The position numbers were made by a program, and so were the translations under genes. Source: a virus. Taken from it: a DNA stretch of 38,110 bases. Numbering within the stretch: position 1 is the stretch's first letter; every line of letters begins with the position of its first letter. The stretch lies in IMG/VR virus record IMGVR_UViG_3300005062_000005, positions 1 through 38,110 of that record, one strand, 5' to 3'. The notes below the pieces were generated by a model, which ran no database searches, was not told the DNA's origin, and saw nothing but the letters and a program-made list of their open reading frames with translations. Of the stretch, positions 8,176 through 19,949 are shown piece after piece.

Positions 8176-9717
8176 CTATCTCCTCTTTGGGCGCCAGCCC
8201 GTCTTACCCTCGGACGGTGCCGCGTATCCCATTGCGTACTGCCGAAAAGCCGCCTCTGGATGCGAGGCCCAATCATGGACCGGCGCATTCATCCAGCATC
8301 CATTGTTGTCGTCCCAACGTCTCCGGTAGTTCTCAAGCCCTTTGATTCCCTCGTCGCAATTCTCTGCGTCGAAGTAGCAAACGGGAAGAACGTTTCTGAC
8401 CGCCTGGATGCCGCTGGCGATGTCGGCCACTCGAGGGACAATGTATGTGTCATGCCCCGGCAACAGCGACCGAAAGGTATCGATGAGTGACTTTGGGTTT
8501 TCCTGGCTACCCATCTCTCTCTTGGCCATGTCATGTGGAAAGAAGTGAATGCCGAAGGTGTAGCCCGTTTCCTTCAGGTAGTTGACGTAGAACCCAAGAC
8601 CACGATCCGAGAATGCGAAATACCGGATGAAGACTTGCTTCCCGGCTACGTCCTGATGAAACCAAATGGAGGTGTGGTCGGATATGCCCAGATCCCAAAA
8701 CGTATTGACCGGGTATCGCGGATCATAGGGGAAGGCCCCCAGACGTTTTTGCTTGCGTACTTGAATGAGCTCGGTCCGGTAATAGGCGCCCTGGACAGCA
8801 ATTTCAAAAGCTTCGTCCGGTGTGCTCGGGAACTCCTGCTTCATGTCGTCGCCCTGAGTCTCGAGCTTTTTGACATACCATGCTTTTTGCCCGGGAGTGA
8901 GATTGATCCCGTGCTTGAACTCCAACTCATCAAAATAATCTTTGTTCTCGGTAGAGAGAATCACGCCAGTCGGATCGATGGTATAACTAGGGTCCTGCCA
9001 CCAAGCGAAGAAGAAAAATTTGTAGTCGAGCTTTGTCAGTCTCGCCCCGCTGGCCTGTAGTTTCCTTGCAGTCTCGCAGTAATCCCAGAAGTACCCACTA
9101 CGCCCTTCAGCCGTGGACTCAATGAAGACATGACAACCTGCAGCCACCGCATTGAGGGCGCCGGTGACGATCTCCTTGGCCTTCTTTGGGTACTTGGCGC
9201 ATATCTTGCCGAACTCGGAGATGTGAAGGAACTGAAGCGTTCCGGACCGGAAGGACGTTGACACCCGGATGGAAGAACCGTTGGAGAACTTGAGCATGCC
9301 GGCCTTGTCCGTCTCGGCGGTGATAGCTTCCTTCACAATATCGGGCAGGCGCTGGTAGGCGAAGTCAACCTTGTCGTCAAAGAATGAGTTCGCATCTTCC
9401 CGGTTGTGCGCGATGATGCCAGCGCGGACGTTGCTATTGAACAGGCATGCGTCCAAAAACAGGATACAGATAAGGGTGGTGAAGCCGAGTTGGCGGGCCT
9501 TGAGGATAAGATTCAGATACCAGAGCAGCGGCAATATAGTCCGCTGGGCGTAGTTCATCTGGAACTTCACCTCGCGGCCATACTTGTCGAGGATCCAATA
9601 GAGGTTATTGAGGCGCCATACACGGTTCCCCCAATTCTCTAAGATCTCTTCCCGGGACAATTCCCGGGGCTGCTTCTGCTGGCTAGTTTTCTTCAACCAG
9701 CGTGGCGGTCTTCCCAT
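8176..9717 (-). CDS. Terminase large subunit (packaging ATPase/nuclease)
   Basis: This is a 513-residue terminase large subunit. A deviant Walker A is visible at about residues 73-81 (KARQLGFTT). The Walker B-like LQFLHISEFGK at 161-171 carries the likely catalytic Glu168. A nuclease-domain aspartate lies in FWDLGISDHTS near residue 341, with further acidic residues in the C-terminal RNase H-like half (YFDAENCDEGIKG). The enzyme translocates DNA into the procapsid through the portal and cuts it. The 5' end overlaps the small subunit gene by 35 bases, and the stop is 3 bases before the portal ATG. Confidence 0.92.
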   Translation of the reverse strand: MGRPPRWLKKTSQQKQPRELSREEILENWGNRVWRLNNLYWILDKYGREVKFQMNYAQRTILPLLWYLNLILKARQLGFTTLICILFLDACLFNSNVRAGIIAHNREDANSFFDDKVDFAYQRLPDIVKEAITAETDKAGMLKFSNGSSIRVSTSFRSGTLQFLHISEFGKICAKYPKKAKEIVTGALNAVAAGCHVFIESTAEGRSGYFWDYCETARKLQASGARLTKLDYKFFFFAWWQDPSYTIDPTGVILSTENKDYFDELEFKHGINLTPGQKAWYVKKLETQGDDMKQEFPSTPDEAFEIAVQGAYYRTELIQVRKQKRLGAFPYDPRYPVNTFWDLGISDHTSIWFHQDVAGKQVFIRYFAFSDRGLGFYVNYLKETGYTFGIHFFPHDMAKREMGSQENPKSLIDTFRSLLPGHDTYIVPRVADIASGIQAVRNVLPVCYFDAENCDEGIKGLENYRRRWDDNNGCWMNAPVHDWASHPEAAFRQYAMGYAAPSEGKTGWRPKRR

Positions 9718-10213
9718 CTATCTCGTCCATGATGTTTCGCATGACATCAAGCTCATGCTTATGATGGACCATTCCTGAATGGTTGTGGTCCACCTTGTCT
9801 TTGAACATGCCCTTGTGCTTGCCCATGAGCTCGTTGCCCCTGAGGGCGCTGCGTGCATCAAAGGTGAAGGCCGGGCACAAAATCCCATCTGCATTTTCGA
9901 CAAAGACCATTTGTCCGTTCCTGTCGGTCACGGGGATGGCCTGCATACAGCGTTCGGTGATTTCCTTTATGTTTCTCAGAACATAGTCCTGCGTAATCTC
10001 GGTGCGTTCACTTCGGTCATCCATCGCCTTCTTGATGGCTGCCTTGATTCGCTCGTCTTTCAAAAGGCGGTTTGCCTGTGAATAGGCTGTCTTCTCCGAG
10101 TATCCAGCACGAATTGCGGCCTGATTGCCGTTCAGGTCGATGATGTACTCCTGAACAAAGCGTGCCTGCTTCGCGTTGAGTGGAGTAGTGGACTTCGCGC
10201 TCTTCTTGGGCAC
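9683..10213 (-). CDS. Terminase small subunit (Terminase_2 type)
   Basis: This is a 176-residue terminase small subunit. The N-terminus, LNAKQARFVQEYIIDLNGNQAAIRAGYSEKTAYSQANRLL, is the classic Terminase_2 helix-turn-helix that recognises the phage packaging site. A central helical oligomerisation region and an acidic C-terminus follow. The start is GTG at 10213, directly after the TAG of the upstream gene and with AGGAGG upstream. It overlaps the large subunit by 35 bases. It would recruit viral DNA to the large subunit and portal. Confidence 0.9.
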   Translation of the reverse strand: MPKKSAKSTTPLNAKQARFVQEYIIDLNGNQAAIRAGYSEKTAYSQANRLLKDERIKAAIKKAMDDRSERTEITQDYVLRNIKEITERCMQAIPVTDRNGQMVFVENADGILCPAFTFDARSALRGNELMGKHKGMFKDKVDHNHSGMVHHKHELDVMRNIMDEIDGKTATLVEEN

Positions 10214-12845: not shown

Positions 12846-13072
12846 TCGGCGTCCTCCTCTTCCGGTGGGTATTCCGGTGAAACAGGTGGGGATGGCGGAG
12901 GATTGAACCAGCGCCTATGCATCGTGCTCAACTGAAATTGTGCGATACAAAAGCAAACAGCCTGCACAATGCAAAAAACTATCATCGTTCCAAACAGCAG
13001 GTACTTACGCCATGGTGTTACCTCAAACTGTGAGACGATGAAGAATACGGCGTCCGCATACCCTTCCATCAT
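12842..13072 (-). CDS. Small membrane protein with proline-rich acidic tail
   Basis: 76 residues. A membrane helix or tight helical pair lies at about residues 25-46 (YLLFGTMIVFCIVQAVCFCIA), preceded by a mildly hydrophobic segment. The tail is PPPSPPVSPEYPPEEEDAE, likely disordered. The start (ATG ATG) has AAGGAG 8 bases upstream and overlaps the stop of the 404-residue zinc protein by 4 bases. The protein is unrecognised. Superinfection exclusion or a host membrane effect is imaginable from position in an early operon, with no direct support. Confidence 0.55.
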   Translation of the reverse strand: MMEGYADAVFFIVSQFEVTPWRKYLLFGTMIVFCIVQAVCFCIAQFQLSTMHRRWFNPPPSPPVSPEYPPEEEDAE

Positions 13073-14283
13073 GCCGCCCGCTCCTTGAAGTCCACGACCA
13101 CGATCCCCGGTGAAGCCCCGCCATCGCCGGTCACCTTGTACCGCCCCGTTTCGGTCACCCCCAGGTCGCGGAGGAACCCGGTTGCCGAAATAATCCTGGT
13201 GTTGCCGTCCTGGACCCTGAGCAAGACGCTGTCCCCGTCCGTGGGTTCGTCGAGCGGGACCAGGGCCAGGACCTTGGCTCCGGCGTCCGAGTAGACGTCC
13301 ACGTACTTGGCCTTGGTCAGCCCGAATTTGAGAACGGTCACGGCATTGAGCGCGAGATCCACGCCCTTGGCGTTTTTACGCACCGCCGCAAACGGCTGAT
13401 TGGTGGAGGTGGTGCGGTGGGTGATATGCCGAGTCAGGGTCAGACCGCCGAACTGGACGGACCGGTCTTGGCCGGATGCGATGTCCAGGCCCCCGAAAAC
13501 AGGCTTGTCCGAACCAGACGCAGGGTAAATGTCGAGAGGGACTGGCCCCGTAGGGCCGCCTAGCATCGTAGTATGCGAGCATGGCCCGGGGCACGCGCAC
13601 TTGTCGCACGCCTCGGCATATTCCTGTTTCTCGAGCGGGTTGCCTTCCCTGGCGTCGTCAACCTCTTGTTTGCCCATTACCCAGGCCAAGCGGATAGTGT
13701 GGGAGACATACGCCGGAGGCTCCACCTTCCAAGTCACGGTCCCGTCGCCGTTCACGACCAACCGCCCGTCCTTGATATACCGGTAGCAACCGCTGCACAA
13801 ACCACCCGCGACAATCTTCTTGCTATCCCGGCCGCACCCAATGCAGACGACCTTCTCCGGTTCGACTGTCTCGTGGTACTCCTCGCTCTTGGGCTCGTCG
13901 GCCAGGGCGTGCTCGGGCATCGTGATCAGCCACACCCATTCGTCGCCCTCGCGGATGAGCTCGCCGGACGCGCGATATTTGGAGCACTCCCCGCACAGCC
14001 CGCCACTCAGAGAGTACGGCCCACGTCCGCAACATTCGCATTTTCCACGCTTCGCCACCGTCTTGGCCTCCTTCGGCAGCCGCTCGGCCACCGTCTTGAT
14101 GAGCGCGCCGTACTCGGTGCACCGCTCGCACCGGTTGATTTTGTGGGGCTGGTTCCCGGTGGTGCTCCACCCGCCGACCCTGGCCCTGTTCGCCTTGCAC
14201 TGCTCGGGCGTGATCCGGGCCCGGATATGCGGACACTCGAACGTGTGGCGTTCCTGCCACGCCTGGATTTCAGCATCGGTCAC
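13069..14283 (-). CDS. Multi-zinc-finger early protein, unknown function
   Basis: 404 residues from GTG 14283, chosen because AGGAGG lies upstream and the codon overlaps the preceding stop (GTGA). The N-terminal half holds several cysteine modules: FECPHIR...EQCKANR...CERC, then KCECCGRGPYS..LCGECSKY, VCIGCGRDSKK..LCSGCYRY, and CDKCACPGPCSH. Each probably binds zinc. The second and third have the same 'CxxCGR-x(n)-GGLCxxCxxY' pattern, suggesting internal duplication. The C-terminal half is beta-rich (VLKFGLTKAKYVDVYSD, ATGFLRDLGVTETGRYKV). No catalytic motif is recognised. Nucleic-acid or protein binding is likely. It follows the MazG-like gene in the early operon. Confidence 0.7.
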   Translation of the reverse strand: MTDAEIQAWQERHTFECPHIRARITPEQCKANRARVGGWSTTGNQPHKINRCERCTEYGALIKTVAERLPKEAKTVAKRGKCECCGRGPYSLSGGLCGECSKYRASGELIREGDEWVWLITMPEHALADEPKSEEYHETVEPEKVVCIGCGRDSKKIVAGGLCSGCYRYIKDGRLVVNGDGTVTWKVEPPAYVSHTIRLAWVMGKQEVDDAREGNPLEKQEYAEACDKCACPGPCSHTTMLGGPTGPVPLDIYPASGSDKPVFGGLDIASGQDRSVQFGGLTLTRHITHRTTSTNQPFAAVRKNAKGVDLALNAVTVLKFGLTKAKYVDVYSDAGAKVLALVPLDEPTDGDSVLLRVQDGNTRIISATGFLRDLGVTETGRYKVTGDGGASPGIVVVDFKERAA

Positions 14284-14523: not shown

Positions 14524-14600
14524 TGGTCGGGGCGGAGGGATTCGAACCCCCGGCATCCTGCTCCCAAAGCAGGCGCGCTACCTGACTGCGCCACGCCCCG
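14524..14600 (-). tRNA. tRNA-Pro (anticodon UGG), CCA encoded
   Basis: The 77-base minus-strand sequence folds completely. The acceptor is CGGGGCG/CGCCCCG, the D stem GCGC/GCGC, the anticodon stem CCTGC/GCAGG with loop TTTGGGA (anticodon TGG), the variable loop ATGCC, and the T arm GGGGG-TTCGAAT-CCCTC with one G-T wobble. A discriminator A and CCA follow. It reads codon CCA and wobble CCN codons. It lies between a cysteine-rich gene and the MazG-like gene, inside the early operon, with phage genes on both sides. It is therefore phage-carried cargo and not a host attachment site. Confidence 0.95.
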
Positions 14601-14610
14601 ATTGTTGACG

Positions 14611-15048
14611 CTACTCGCCGCGTTCGTGGTCGGACACGGCGCACCGTGTGCACTCGCCCTGGACGTTGCACGGGCCACCTGCAAACAGTTCGCCGCAGCT
14701 TGAGCAGGTGAAGGACTCTGCGATTCCGCAACCGTAACCGTCCGCATCGTGCCTGCAGTCGCACGGACCAGTATCCTCGGCAGGGCCGTTGTTCACGGCA
14801 CAACTCGACAGGTGTCCGCTGTGGATGTAGCAGCACGTTCCGCATTCCTCGTCGAGGTACGTAGGCTGACCGGCCAGGGGCTTGCCGCATATGCCGCAGT
14901 TGTCCGGTACTTCCACTTCGCGACTCAAATCGCGGCGGTTGTTTTCCAACTGCGGAACAATATCCCCGGCCAGGTTTGAAAAAGACTCGGGGTTGATGCT
15001 CTGTCTGCACATGGCCACAAACGCAGTGATAACCTGTTGTTCAGTCAT
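14611..15048 (-). CDS. Cysteine-rich zinc-binding early protein
   Basis: 145 residues from ATG 15048 (AAAGGAG upstream; eight further codons lack a site). The N-terminal helical part starts MTEQQVITAFVAMCRQ. The rest is full of cysteine pairs: CGICGKPL, CGTCCYIHSGHLSSC, CDCRHDADGYGC, CSSCGELFAGGPC, CTRC. These suggest three or more zinc knuckles. No known enzyme signature is visible. It lies directly upstream of the tRNA in the early operon. The function is unknown, with nucleic-acid or protein binding likely. Confidence 0.6.
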   Translation of the reverse strand: MTEQQVITAFVAMCRQSINPESFSNLAGDIVPQLENNRRDLSREVEVPDNCGICGKPLAGQPTYLDEECGTCCYIHSGHLSSCAVNNGPAEDTGPCDCRHDADGYGCGIAESFTCSSCGELFAGGPCNVQGECTRCAVSDHERGE

Positions 15049-15084
15049 TCCGTTCTCCTTTTGCGCTCTCACGCGGTTTATGAT

Positions 15085-15561
15085 TCATCTGTCCGACTCT
15101 CCTCCGTTGACCTGCCACCATTGAGCCTTGCACATCTGGCAGCTCAGTCCCTTGCGCAGGATCATGTTCACGCCGTAGTCGTGAGCCACGACATGGCCGT
15201 CGATGGTCCCGAAATTCGTCAACTTCAGGTCGGTGAAGAACCTCGGCATCATCTTCGGCCGCTCTGCCCAGCCGAGTGGTTGCGTCCGGCGCTGCATGAG
15301 CACCTTGCCGTTGGCGCTGATTCGTTCGCAGGGTGCAAGCCATTTCGCAGCCGGAGTACCCTCGGCCTCGTGGAAGACTTCCCACTCCATGATGTTCTGC
15401 CAAGAGTTCTCAGCCGTCTCGAATTTGAGGACGAAGTCCGTGTTGGTGGCACAGACGAACACTTCTCGGCTGATGCCGCCGCCCAGGCGTGGCCCAATGG
15501 TGAAGTCAAGTAGGTCGCGGCTGATGTTGTTGCCGAAGTGGTCCCAAACGTTCGTTGCCAT
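15085..15561 (-). CDS. Miniature protein-kinase-like phage protein
   Basis: 158 residues carrying the order of a kinase catalytic core. Residues 22-37 (IGPRLGGGISREVFVC) resemble a glycine-rich loop, VLK46 the ATP lysine, and E59 the helix C glutamate. LMQRRTQPL looks like a hinge, T-DLKLTN-FG (D111, K113, N116) the catalytic loop, and DYG (D128) the DFG motif. Most of the C-lobe after DYG is absent; the end has a C-x-x-C and WWQVNGG. Normal kinases need about 250 residues, so activity is open. Similar phage proteins exist from memory, usually unnamed. It follows rusA without a gap and precedes the cysteine-rich gene. Confidence 0.6.
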   Translation of the reverse strand: MATNVWDHFGNNISRDLLDFTIGPRLGGGISREVFVCATNTDFVLKFETAENSWQNIMEWEVFHEAEGTPAAKWLAPCERISANGKVLMQRRTQPLGWAERPKMMPRFFTDLKLTNFGTIDGHVVAHDYGVNMILRKGLSCQMCKAQWWQVNGGESDR

Positions 15562-15564
15562 GGG

Positions 15565-15957
15565 TTATCCTGCCATCCTGAGCACATCGAGCTCCCGAAC
15601 CTCGACCAGGACATACCCGCCCTTGACCACGGCCCCGCGCACCACGCGCAGGTCGTCAATCTGGGAGTCATCGCCCCAGATCCCGGCGTGAGTGAGCGCG
15701 TCGAGCAGCCCTTTGTTAAAATTGTCCAGGTCACGCTTGCGCCGGTCAGGCGGGTACAGCGTCACCTTCACGGCCAGACGTCCGCCCAGGTGTATATTGG
15801 TCAGGTGGACAACGCAGCATTCGCCGACAACGGCATCGCGGTAGTCCCGGCCCTTCGCGCTGATGAGCGTCCTGACTCCCTGGCCCATGCGGATGGACCG
15901 GTAGTACTGGTTCGTACTCGGGGGGAATGGCAGCTTGATGGTGACGGTGTCGCTCAT
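15565..15957 (-). CDS. rusA: RusA-like Holliday junction resolvase
   Basis: 130 residues from ATG 15957, which overlaps the previous stop (ATGA). The RusA pattern is clear: LPFPPSTNQYYRS at the start, and PPDRRKRDLDNFNKGLLDALTHAG with conserved acidic residues DLDN, followed by WGDDSQIDDL. The enzyme is a dimeric Mg2+-dependent nuclease that resolves Holliday junctions and branched DNA before packaging. Its length matches the family (about 120-135). It lies with replication genes in the early operon. Confidence 0.9.
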   Translation of the reverse strand: MSDTVTIKLPFPPSTNQYYRSIRMGQGVRTLISAKGRDYRDAVVGECCVVHLTNIHLGGRLAVKVTLYPPDRRKRDLDNFNKGLLDALTHAGIWGDDSQIDDLRVVRGAVVKGGYVLVEVRELDVLRMAG

Positions 15958-16477: not shown

Positions 16478-16894
16478 TTATTGCTGGTACCGCTTCGACC
16501 GTTCCGTCTCGACGGCAATCTTGATTGCTTCCATGCCCTTGACCCCCTCTTTCCCCAGAGCGGCAATCTGGCGGCATATCGGGCCGTCGCAGAACTTGCC
16601 CCGTTGTCCGTCCATGGCCTCGCTTGCAGGGCGTTCGGCCTGCTGTTTTTCCCGCCACTGGTAGTAAACCGCCATCATGGCCTTCTTGAGATTCCTGGGC
16701 TTGTTGTCCCCGTCCCCGAGCACTTCGGCGATGAACGGGTACGCCTCGGGTTCGATGAAGTTCTGGACCTTCTCCCACGCGACGGTGGTACGCCTGTCGT
16801 TGGCGTCGGGGGCGTTGAACCCCAAGCTGGCGTGGATATCCACCCAGCATTTCCAGAAGGCGTCGAAACGGCGGTTGTACTCTTGCTTATTCAT
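16478..16894 (-). CDS. Early protein following the replication initiator (possible loader partner)
   Basis: 138 residues, ATG 16894 overlapping the stop of the O-like gene (ATGA). It contains MNKQEYNRRFDAFWKCWVD, YPFIAEVLGDGDNKPRNLKK and YYQWREKQQAER, followed by a helical tail. No Walker motif is present, so it is not a DnaC-type ATPase. Position directly after an O-like initiator is where lambda P-like helicase loaders lie. That role is a guess from context; otherwise it is a hypothetical protein. Confidence 0.5.
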   Translation of the reverse strand: MNKQEYNRRFDAFWKCWVDIHASLGFNAPDANDRRTTVAWEKVQNFIEPEAYPFIAEVLGDGDNKPRNLKKAMMAVYYQWREKQQAERPASEAMDGQRGKFCDGPICRQIAALGKEGVKGMEAIKIAVETERSKRYQQ

Positions 16895-17826
16895 GCTGCG
16901 TCCTCCTTCACGACCCCGGGCTTAGGCGGAGGCGGGGTTGGTGTCTTGTTGGCCTGGGTTTCCGCGCGCTGGTACTTGTCCTTCCAACGCTGGTTCTCAA
17001 CGAACTTCGAAAATTGCGGGACGAATCCGCGTAACCACTTCTCGTCGTTGTCCCTGCGCTCGATGATATGATCGCGGATGTAGGCCGGTTCGATGAGTAG
17101 CCCTCGCTGATACATGTCGTGCCAGACCCTCCACCCTTCGACCTCGTTTTCCTGGACGGGGTAGACGTCGAAGCACGACTTGAACCCGGCGCGGGCGGGA
17201 TGATTCTTGGACGGGAAATTGTTCTTCTTTGGACCGGACCTTGGCGGGGCATTTTCCTCGCACACGCCCCCCTGCTCCGGCTCCCTGTTAGAGGCACTAT
17301 TGTGTGTGTTAGTAAGAGTAGTGTTATAAGTAGGAGTAGGAGAAGGAGAAGGAGAAGAGGGCGTTACCCCCGTGTTACCAGATTGTTTTGCCTTGAAGCG
17401 ACGTTGACGTTCAGCGTTGTTATTCTTGACTTTTTGTTCTCTCCACATACGTCGATTTATGAGCGTTATTTCAGCGTTGTGAAGCGTTATTTCAGCGTTA
17501 CTTTTTGCGTTACCAAGTAACGCTTCGGTAACGCCTGAGGCCACAAATTCACCCTCTTTTACAATCCACTCTTCGCCTATTTTCAGGTCGGCAAAACAGA
17601 ACTGAGCAACCTGTTGAAGGAAGTCGAAAAATTCGTCTGGGAACATCCCCAAGGCCTTGCAAAGGGAAGGGCCGGGGCCTTCCAGGATACCTTTCTGGGG
17701 ATTCCGCCACATACGGCAAAGGCAGCGCATCCAACGGCCTTGTGTGGCGTCGGACGCCTGCATAAGCTGGGTGTCGGACAACCAGTCGTCCGGATATATC
17801 TGGAAAGCCGGAGCCTTCTTCGCCAT
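16891..17826 (-). CDS. DUF1376/O-like phage replication initiation protein
   Basis: 311 residues. The N-terminus (FQIYPDDWLSDTQLMQ, ASDATQGRWMRCLCRMW) matches the DUF1376-type domain common in phage replication proteins. A low-complexity Ser/Pro/Thr/Asn linker lies at about residues 155-185. The C-terminal domain (WRVWHDMYQRGLLIEPAYI and FSKFVENQRWKDKY) probably binds replication partners. The middle encodes NAEITLHNAEITL, a protein repeat created by DNA iterons in the gene. It starts in TAATG overlap with the preceding gene. By analogy to lambda O it would bind the iterons and recruit the host replication machinery. That analogy is inference. Confidence 0.7.
   Translation of the reverse strand: MAKKAPAFQIYPDDWLSDTQLMQASDATQGRWMRCLCRMWRNPQKGILEGPGPSLCKALGMFPDEFFDFLQQVAQFCFADLKIGEEWIVKEGEFVASGVTEALLGNAKSNAEITLHNAEITLINRRMWREQKVKNNNAERQRRFKAKQSGNTGVTPSSPSPSPTPTYNTTLTNTHNSASNREPEQGGVCEENAPPRSGPKKNNFPSKNHPARAGFKSCFDVYPVQENEVEGWRVWHDMYQRGLLIEPAYIRDHIIERRDNDEKWLRGFVPQFSKFVENQRWKDKYQRAETQANKTPTPPPPKPGVVKEDAA
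17361..17534. other. Candidate replication origin (iteron cluster inside the O-like gene)
   Basis: A 17-bp direct repeat, AGCGTTATTTCAGCGTT, occurs at 17462-17478 and 17483-17499, 21 bases apart (two helical turns). The core GCGTT(A) also occurs at 17361, 17414, 17507 and, inverted, at 17517 and 17527. GCGTTAC-CAA-GTAACGC forms a perfect inverted repeat at 17507-17523. The stretch is AT-richer than its surroundings. Lambdoid phages carry their origin as iterons inside gene O, so this is a good candidate. The repeats are seen directly; the origin role is inferred. Confidence 0.6.
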
Positions 17827-19174: not shown

Positions 19175-19211
19175 CAGACTGCATACGAAAACTTTGATAT
19201 TGGTGGTAATC

Positions 19212-19949
19212 ATGGGATTTCACGATGATTTCGTTAATGGCCTCAAAGGGCTGGCAGGAGAAGACAAGCGGTTCAAGAATGTCGCTCGTCTAGCTGACGC
19301 CTGCGATGTGGCACCGATTCAGATCAGTCGGATTATCAACCGCGACCGAGAAACATACCTCAAGGCTATAGGCAAAATCATTGACGGCGTGGGAGCTCGT
19401 CTTGTTTTCGATTCTGAGGAGCACGATCCGACCAGAGAAGTATGCTTCATTGACGCAAAGGCAGTGAACGCGCCGGATGCGGCCAAGATAGCCGACGAGG
19501 ACTACATTGCCGTGCCCCTGGCCGAAGAAGTCGTTGCCGCCGGACCGGGAATCATCCCCCAAGACTCGATACGCGGATGGATTCTTGTGTGGAGGAACCA
19601 AAAGGCCGTCCAGTTCACCACCAACCTGGTTGCGGTCGAGATCGGCAGGAACGAAAGGTCCATGGTCCCGACGTTCTGGCCGGAAGACATTCTGCTTGTA
19701 GATAGATCGAACAGAAACCCAGAGACGGCCGGAAAAACCTGGCTGGTCTGCGACCCAGACGGCGGGTGTGCCATCAAGCGCGTGAGCTCAAGAAAGGTGA
19801 AGGGTGACGTGGAATTGACGTTCTACTCTGACAACGCAAAGGAATTTCCGCCCACGACCCATAGGCTCAATCGGGATTTTGACGGCGACATCAATCGGGC
19901 CATAGCTGGCCGAGTGGTCTGGGCTTGGTCGGACGTACGAGAAAAGTGA
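19212..19949 (+). CDS. CI-like repressor with S24 (LexA-type) autoprotease domain
   Basis: 245 residues from ATG 19212 (weak GGTGG upstream; TTG 19194 is less likely). The N-terminal HTH is at about residues 24-48 (VARLADACDVAPIQISRIIN). The C-terminal S24 peptidase has a possible Ala110-Gly111 self-cleavage site, catalytic Ser150 in ERSMVPTFWPEDILL and Lys189 in GCAIKRV. Such repressors keep a prophage silent and self-cleave with RecA after DNA damage. It diverges from cro over two operators and ends at an intrinsic terminator. It implies a temperate lifestyle. Confidence 0.88.
   Translation: MGFHDDFVNGLKGLAGEDKRFKNVARLADACDVAPIQISRIINRDRETYLKAIGKIIDGVGARLVFDSEEHDPTREVCFIDAKAVNAPDAAKIADEDYIAVPLAEEVVAAGPGIIPQDSIRGWILVWRNQKAVQFTTNLVAVEIGRNERSMVPTFWPEDILLVDRSNRNPETAGKTWLVCDPDGGCAIKRVSSRKVKGDVELTFYSDNAKEFPPTTHRLNRDFDGDINRAIAGRVVWAWSDVREK

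What the first reader, a model, noticed from the sequence alone, without database searches (positions are those of the whole stretch)
15085..15561. 158-residue minimal kinase-like protein keeping Lys, Glu, DxKxxN and DYG
Motif order and spacing fit the kinase core (K46, E59, D111-K113-N116, D128), but nearly the whole C-lobe is absent. Either it is among the smallest kinase folds or it became a nucleotide-binding decoy. It stands in the early operon beside RusA and cysteine-rich proteins, so it may modify or sense host factors. Its replacement of HRD by FTD is unusual.
Basis: partly seen in the sequence, partly recalled or inferred. Interest (0 to 1): 0.65.

Follow-up and report, generated by a model that had tools for sequence, protein, structure and literature searches.

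The report
Tiny phage kinase without C-lobe
A small virus-of-bacteria gene appears to encode one of the most stripped-down protein-kinase folds known, and its relatives in many unrelated phages keep the catalytic residues, so it probably still transfers phosphate, although no one has tested what it acts on.

Summary
The ORF is real: window 15085-15561, minus strand, 158 aa, starting 3 nt after RusA's stop. It belongs to phrog_4301, 'unknown function' (E 2e-28); Pfam, NCBIfam and a PDB sequence search do not place it. tblastn finds relatives in 89 phage records. In 43 non-identical long-type relatives K46, E59, D111, N116 and D128 are present in 43 of 43. An AlphaFold2 model on 29 relatives (pLDDT 88.9) matches kinases: 14 PDB hits at E <= 0.001, all kinases, best OspG/NleH. 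The model has the N-lobe, helix C, catalytic loop and 'DYG', but no helix between hinge and catalytic Asp and almost nothing after DYG. A sister branch (118-133 aa in coliphages) ends exactly at DYG.

Phage kinases lacking the C-lobe were already predicted in 2017 (Kinase-PolyVal); this family lacks their Glu signature, and some phage records already call it 'kinase'. I rate it a new variant of a known kind. Most likely it is an ATP-dependent phosphotransferase acting on host proteins, perhaps completed by substrate or partner. Activity, substrate and partner are untested.

The parts
15085..15561 (-). minimal kinase-like protein, 158 aa, phrog_4301 (P0001); G-loop G27xG29xxR32, beta-3 K46, helix-C E59, catalytic loop D111-L-K113-x-x-N116, D128-Y-G
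15565..15957 (-). RusA-like Holliday junction resolvase, upstream neighbour; its stop codon lies 3 nt before the kinase start
14611..15072 (-). cysteine-rich ORF, 153 aa, immediate downstream neighbour; no PHROG or Pfam match at E <= 0.01

Best explanation
It is a stand-alone phage member of the protein-kinase-like superfamily reduced to the N-lobe plus the catalytic loop and DFG-like strand. Shown by computation: the fold prediction, and conservation of the ATP Lys (K46), its helix-C Glu (E59), catalytic Asp (D111), Asn (N116) and Mg-binding Asp (D128). Inferred: it binds Mg-ATP and transfers phosphate. Inferred further: because there is no helix alpha-E, no activation segment and no peptide-binding C-lobe, the substrate or a host partner must dock on the open cleft and supply the missing surface, much as OspG is switched on by binding a host complex. 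Inferred last: the targets are host proteins altered for the phage's benefit (metabolism or defence), as for the phage kinases T7 gp0.7 and JSS1_004.
For: Model of P0001 on 29 sequences, pLDDT 88.9, pTM 0.83; 14 PDB matches with E <= 0.001, all kinases, top OspG and NleH; VIA Z 8.5 APH(2'')-IVa, 8.4 TTK, model 17-132 to TTK 516-668 in 5eho, which by that end puts D128 on residue 664, TTK's DFG Asp (numbering recalled). BFVD hits are family members, then several annotated viral kinases. Catalytic residues 43 of 43 in the long branch; K, E, D128 63 of 63 overall. Second model, 121Q gp215 (123 aa), pLDDT 84.3: 1-123 fits TTK 528-667, ending at DFG, best Foldseek E 6.1e-4. Neighbouring genes differ between phages, so no genetically fixed partner, which fits a host target or partner. 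Precedents read: Kinase-PolyVal (section 10), JSS1_004 (abstract and introduction), OspG (passages).
Against: No activity data. Sequence-profile comparison with bacterial Pkinase is at chance level for the long branch (E 0.023; best of 20 shuffles 0.024) and only modestly above for the whole family (score 23.5 vs 17.6). No Pfam kinase model hits the window protein. VIA Z values of about 8 are middling by the tool's own note. A SteC construct ending shortly after its DGD motif was inactive (PMC13395416, passages), so a kinase ending 28 residues past DYG may be inactive without a partner. Nothing shows a protein rather than a small-molecule or nucleic-acid substrate; APH is among the closest folds. 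Timing of expression was not measured.
Confidence: 0.5

Rival explanations
1. It is catalytically dead: a nucleotide-binding decoy or scaffold that competes with or binds a host protein (pseudokinase).
For: C-lobe missing; a truncated SteC kinase of comparable end point was inactive. One clade of six short-branch proteins has D111 to E, three of them also N116 to S.
Against: D111, N116 and D128 are all identical in 43 of 43 long-branch proteins, which are only about 28-47% identical to the window protein; a pure decoy need not keep the catalytic Asp.
Confidence: 0.2
2. It phosphorylates a small molecule, nucleotide or nucleic acid (aminoglycoside-kinase-like or DNA-base kinase) rather than protein.
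For: APH(2'')-IVa has the top VIA Z, 8.5 over 133 residues. Yuavirus phages carry a thymidine hypermodification pathway with a 5hmdU kinase (PMC11946847, one passage).
Against: APH profile no better than shuffles. The family also occurs in T4-like, N4-like, Seurat-like and jumbo phages and in Nanhaivirus, which so far as I recall share no one modification system. That the 5hmdU kinase is a separate protein is recalled, not tested.
Confidence: 0.2
3. It is half of a split kinase: an adjacent phage protein supplies the C-lobe, as in the composite HipA of Legionella.
For: Composite HipA precedent (PMC9758233, passages); 30 of 38 loci have an upstream ORF within -19 to +13 nt.
Against: No neighbour family recurs beyond 4 of 37 upstream or 3 of 37 downstream, and those are terminases. 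The catalytic loop and DYG, normally part of the C-lobe, are already in this protein.
Confidence: 0.08
4. It modifies proteins by AMP transfer (SelO-like), or phosphorylates only itself.
For: Kinase folds can transfer AMP (SelO, recalled; no call tests it here).
Against: Kinase-like placement of D111 and N116; otherwise not testable here.
Confidence: 0.05

Closest known systems
phrog_4301 (PHROGs v4)
   Same: The window protein and all 10 of 10 relatives scanned match it.
   Different: PHROGs gives it no function.
Kinase-PolyVal (PF18762), Iyer et al. 2017, PMC5512222
   Same: Phage/mobile-element kinase domain that lost the whole C-terminal subdomain but kept active-site residues; G-loop, K, DxHxxN and ID in the same order. 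That PF18762 is the Pfam entry for the 2017 domain is recalled from its name.
   Different: PolyVal's Glu before strand 2 (GxEHxV) is absent (Glu in at most 1 of 63; R32 invariant instead); PolyVal is reported mainly inside multidomain proteins of Verrucomicrobia-Chlamydia and Bacteroidetes (pro)phages; profile comparison E 0.023 vs best of 20 shuffles 0.041.
YrbL-PhoP_reg (PF10707)
   Same: Best sequence-level relative: 7 of 29 members hit it at E <= 1, best 0.0019; hhalign E 3.9e-4 vs best of 20 shuffles 0.023, mostly the G-loop and Lys region.
   Different: YrbL matches over the cut-off span about 170-205 aa with a fuller C-terminal part, in bacterial genomes.
OspG / NleH effector kinases
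   Same: Top PDB fold matches; small kinases; OspG needs a host partner.
   Different: They are type III effectors and, as recalled, keep helix alpha-E; sequence identity 15-18% in the fold alignments.
T7 gp0.7 / JSS1_004 phage kinases
   Same: Phage-encoded kinases that alter host proteins.
   Different: Comparison of function only; the Lydia record's note 'gp 0.7; T7-like' was not confirmed by any sequence test here.

Membership tests
Protein-kinase-like superfamily | beta-3 Lys and helix-C Glu | tested here: met
   K46 and E59, 63 of 63
Protein-kinase-like superfamily | catalytic Asp, Asn at +5 and DFG-like Asp | tested here: met
   D111, N116, D128 in 43 of 43 long branch; short branch 14, 17 and 20 of 20
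Protein-kinase-like superfamily | kinase N-lobe fold | tested here: met
   by prediction only; short branch 107, 114, 115
Eukaryotic-like protein kinase (PF00069) | Pfam profile match | tested here: not met
   no match
Eukaryotic-like protein kinase (PF00069) | HRD motif, alpha-E helix and full C-lobe | tested here: not met
   FTD in place of HRD; no such helices in the model
Kinase-PolyVal (PF18762) | C-terminal subdomain lost, active site kept | tested here: met
Kinase-PolyVal (PF18762) | Glu N-terminal to strand 2 | tested here: not met
   column 31 is S/H/Y/A/T and others; Glu in at most 1 of 63; column matched by hhalign
Kinase-PolyVal (PF18762) | conserved Gln in last N-lobe strand | tested here: inconclusive
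   Q90 in 32 of 43 long and 3 of 20 short
Kinase-PolyVal (PF18762) | insert between His and Asp of the phosphotransfer site | not tested
   the position is not clear from the paper's text alone
YrbL-PhoP_reg (PF10707) | profile match over the curated cut-off | tested here: not met
   no hit of the window protein itself; hits of other members weak, best E 0.0019 and, 14.1 and 12 bits against a cut-off of 31.5
APH (PF01636) | profile match over the curated cut-off | tested here: not met
   no match of the window protein; one relative at 13.3 bits against 23.2; hhalign at shuffle level
phrog_4301 | profile match | tested here: met
   E 2e-28 over residues 13-133

The most novel reading that the evidence does not exclude
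phrog_4301 is a phage-wide lineage of catalytically active kinases of about 118-158 residues that work without a C-lobe: the host target itself docks to the naked catalytic core and completes the active site. They would be among the smallest complete kinases in nature, with the shortest members ending at the DFG motif.
Probability: 0.3. Interest if true: 0.75.

Novelty: new variant of a known kind. Interest (0 to 1): 0.5.

Why it matters
It makes testable, in a small E. coli phage protein, how much of the kinase fold is needed for phosphotransfer. It also turns a large 'unknown function' phage family (89 and 64 phage records by two searches, overlap not checked) into a concrete hypothesis about host takeover or counter-defence. 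C-lobe-less phage kinases were already predicted in 2017, which limits the surprise.

Tried and rejected
Pfam, NCBIfam and PDB sequence searches of the single protein gave nothing useful. A profile search of the PDB with A2 gave TBK1's N-lobe at E 0.76 among chance hits. PADLOC gave only one match, at E 0.064. A tempting likeness of 'TDLKxxNFG' to the DxKxEFG signature of SAICAR synthetase (signature recalled) was tested: profile comparison is at shuffle level; the fold hits to PAICS and a bacterial SAICAR synthase probably reflect the superfamily. APH membership was rejected on the same test. The split-kinase idea is weakened by variable neighbours. A single-protein scan of viral contigs found nothing; the alignment scan found 37 loci.

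Bacterial genomes: 2 loci in genome contigs (80 stretches matched a pattern) and, of 249 Pseudomonadota genomes, only the seed genome itself, so it looks like a phage family. PF00069 was not found in the window's own record.

Print: nothing on phrog_4301 as a kinase was seen; searches were (open-licence PMC only; listings). Read: PMC11946847 (one passage), PMC12345140 (abstract, introduction), PMC9758233, PMC9950578, PMC13395416, PMC7824862 (passages), PMC5512222 (section 10 and passages). Some GenBank records already call members a kinase.

Rows dropped: of 37 viral loci, 28 went into A2; L026, L043, L048, L049, L053 (broken or cut) and L021, L022, L038, L052 (duplicates or near-duplicates) were left out. 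Of 38 upstream ORFs, L020 and L037 were left out of A6 as near-duplicates. EKU1 (L015) has a broken frame and was left out. Profiles used 8 of 13 YrbL matches, 20 Pkinase loci, 19 of 20 APH loci, 20 SAICAR loci (L118 from a position found by frame) and 13 of 19 PolyVal matches. The tails of the OBP and Kc263 proteins were cut at residue 150 for the counts and tree. The row for L054 keeps some upstream frame.

Full report
What is there. The ORF lies on the minus strand at 15085-15561, 158 aa. It starts 3 nt after the stop of a RusA-like resolvase and is followed by a cysteine-rich ORF and a tRNA-Pro gene. The flanks look like a temperate phage: a CI-like repressor on the plus strand at 19194-19949, a replication/primosomal protein at 16891-17826, RusA, and a terminase small subunit at 9683-10213. 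The window is a 38,110-base virus record of its own. In the phage collection the 10 records listed (of 65 with a match to window 1-25000) match only at the tRNA, so the host is unknown.

Family. It matches phrog_4301 (unknown function) at E 2e-28 and no Pfam or NCBIfam model. tblastn finds 89 phage records at E <= 0.01: mostly Pseudomonas phages (72), many YuA-like, also phages of Sphingomonas, Dinoroseobacter, Stenotrophomonas, Pseudanabaena, Vibrio and others. A second branch, reached through two weak E. coli phage hits (E 4 and 8) that match the same PHROG at 1e-43 and 4e-31, has 64 phage records at E <= 0.001, among them T4-like, N4-like, Seurat-like and jumbo phages. Some annotators had called members kinases (for example AN14, Lydia, Pan1, PAKlein3, XM05, Kc263, AH04).

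Conservation. In 63 non-identical proteins (43 long, 20 short): G29, R32, K46, N56, E59 and D128 are 63 of 63. D111 is 43 of 43 and 14 of 20 (Glu in 6); N116 is 43 of 43 and 17 of 20 (Ser in 3); K113 is K in 38 and H in 5 of the 43. The tree puts the six Glu proteins in one clade (96/92) and separates short from long branch (100/98), the bootstrap being rough. One change of the catalytic Asp therefore explains all departures; that clade, which includes OBP, Kc263, AH04 and RHph_I42, may be pseudokinases.

Fold. The model built on 29 sequences has mean pLDDT 88.9, pTM 0.83: N-lobe strands, helix C (55-66), catalytic loop, strand pair 117-126, DYG, one short helix and a short strand. Foldseek against the PDB gives 14 hits at E <= 0.001, all kinases: OspG, NleH1/2, MEK1, RIO2, SPAK, CK2. 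VIA gives Z 8.5 (APH(2'')-IVa, 133 residues, rmsd 3.8), 8.4 (TTK) and 8.0 (PAICS). In 5eho the end of the alignment (132 to 668) puts D128 at 664, TTK's DFG Asp (recalled numbering). TM-scores are low (0.40-0.50 by query), as one would expect when much of the fold is missing. 121Q gp215 (123 aa; pLDDT 84.3) fits kinases from its first to its last residue, ending at DFG, but keeps two helices where alpha-E would lie. The window branch lacks these, so it is the more reduced between hinge and catalytic loop, while the coliphage branch is the shorter overall.

Sequence-level limits. By profile comparison the long branch resembles YrbL above chance (E 3.9e-4; best of 20 shuffles 0.023), Pkinase not (0.023 vs 0.024), the whole family Pkinase modestly (score 23.5 vs 17.6); APH and SAICAR synthetase not; PolyVal marginally (0.023 vs 0.041). 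The short branch alone resembles none of them above shuffles. The kinase assignment therefore rests on the predicted fold plus invariant residues, not on sequence profiles.

Context. Of 38 loci with an upstream ORF by a mechanical rule, 30 have it within -19 to +13 nt, so the gene usually sits in an operon. But the neighbours vary: of 37 upstream ORFs 4 are terminase large subunits and 2 DNA transfer proteins; of 37 downstream ORFs 3 match terminase. No partner gene is fixed. The 'early' label fits some phages (beside replication genes) but not those where it follows the terminase.

Mechanism. Shown: kinase-like predicted fold, invariant catalytic set, missing C-lobe. Inferred: Mg-ATP binding and phosphotransfer; substrate or partner completing the cleft (OspG is activated by E2-ubiquitin, passages); host proteins as targets (JSS1_004 phosphorylates DndFGH and other defence proteins). 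Against: a SteC fragment ending soon after its DGD is inactive, so partner-free activity is doubtful.

Known or new. Iyer et al. 2017 (section 10) described phage kinases that lost the whole C-terminal subdomain and suggested that they phosphorylate specific proteins. This family meets that general description but not the PolyVal Glu signature, is stand-alone, and was found mainly in phages of Proteobacteria. I therefore file it as a new variant of a known kind and do not claim PolyVal membership.

Noticed in passing
window 14524-14600, minus strand: tRNA-Pro (TGG) gene just downstream of the cysteine-rich ORF; about 89% identical to tRNA-Pro of Stenotrophomonas phages.
   Followed up: no
window 14611-15072 and 13069-14283, minus strand: Two cysteine-rich ORFs with repeated CxxC-type pairs and no PHROG or Pfam match at E <= 0.01; possibly zinc-ribbon proteins.
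   Followed up: partly
L136, L137, L138, L139, L143, L144: One clade of six short-branch proteins has the catalytic Asp changed to Glu, three also Asn to Ser; OBP and Kc263 carry long C-terminal tails: possible pseudokinase offshoot.
   Followed up: partly
L015 (Pseudomonas phage EKU1), L026, L043: The kinase frame is interrupted although the tblastn match runs on: broken genes or sequencing errors.
   Followed up: no
L001 9076-9546 (phage YuA gp44): Annotated as holding a diguanylate-cyclase domain with a putative role in host conversion.
   Followed up: no
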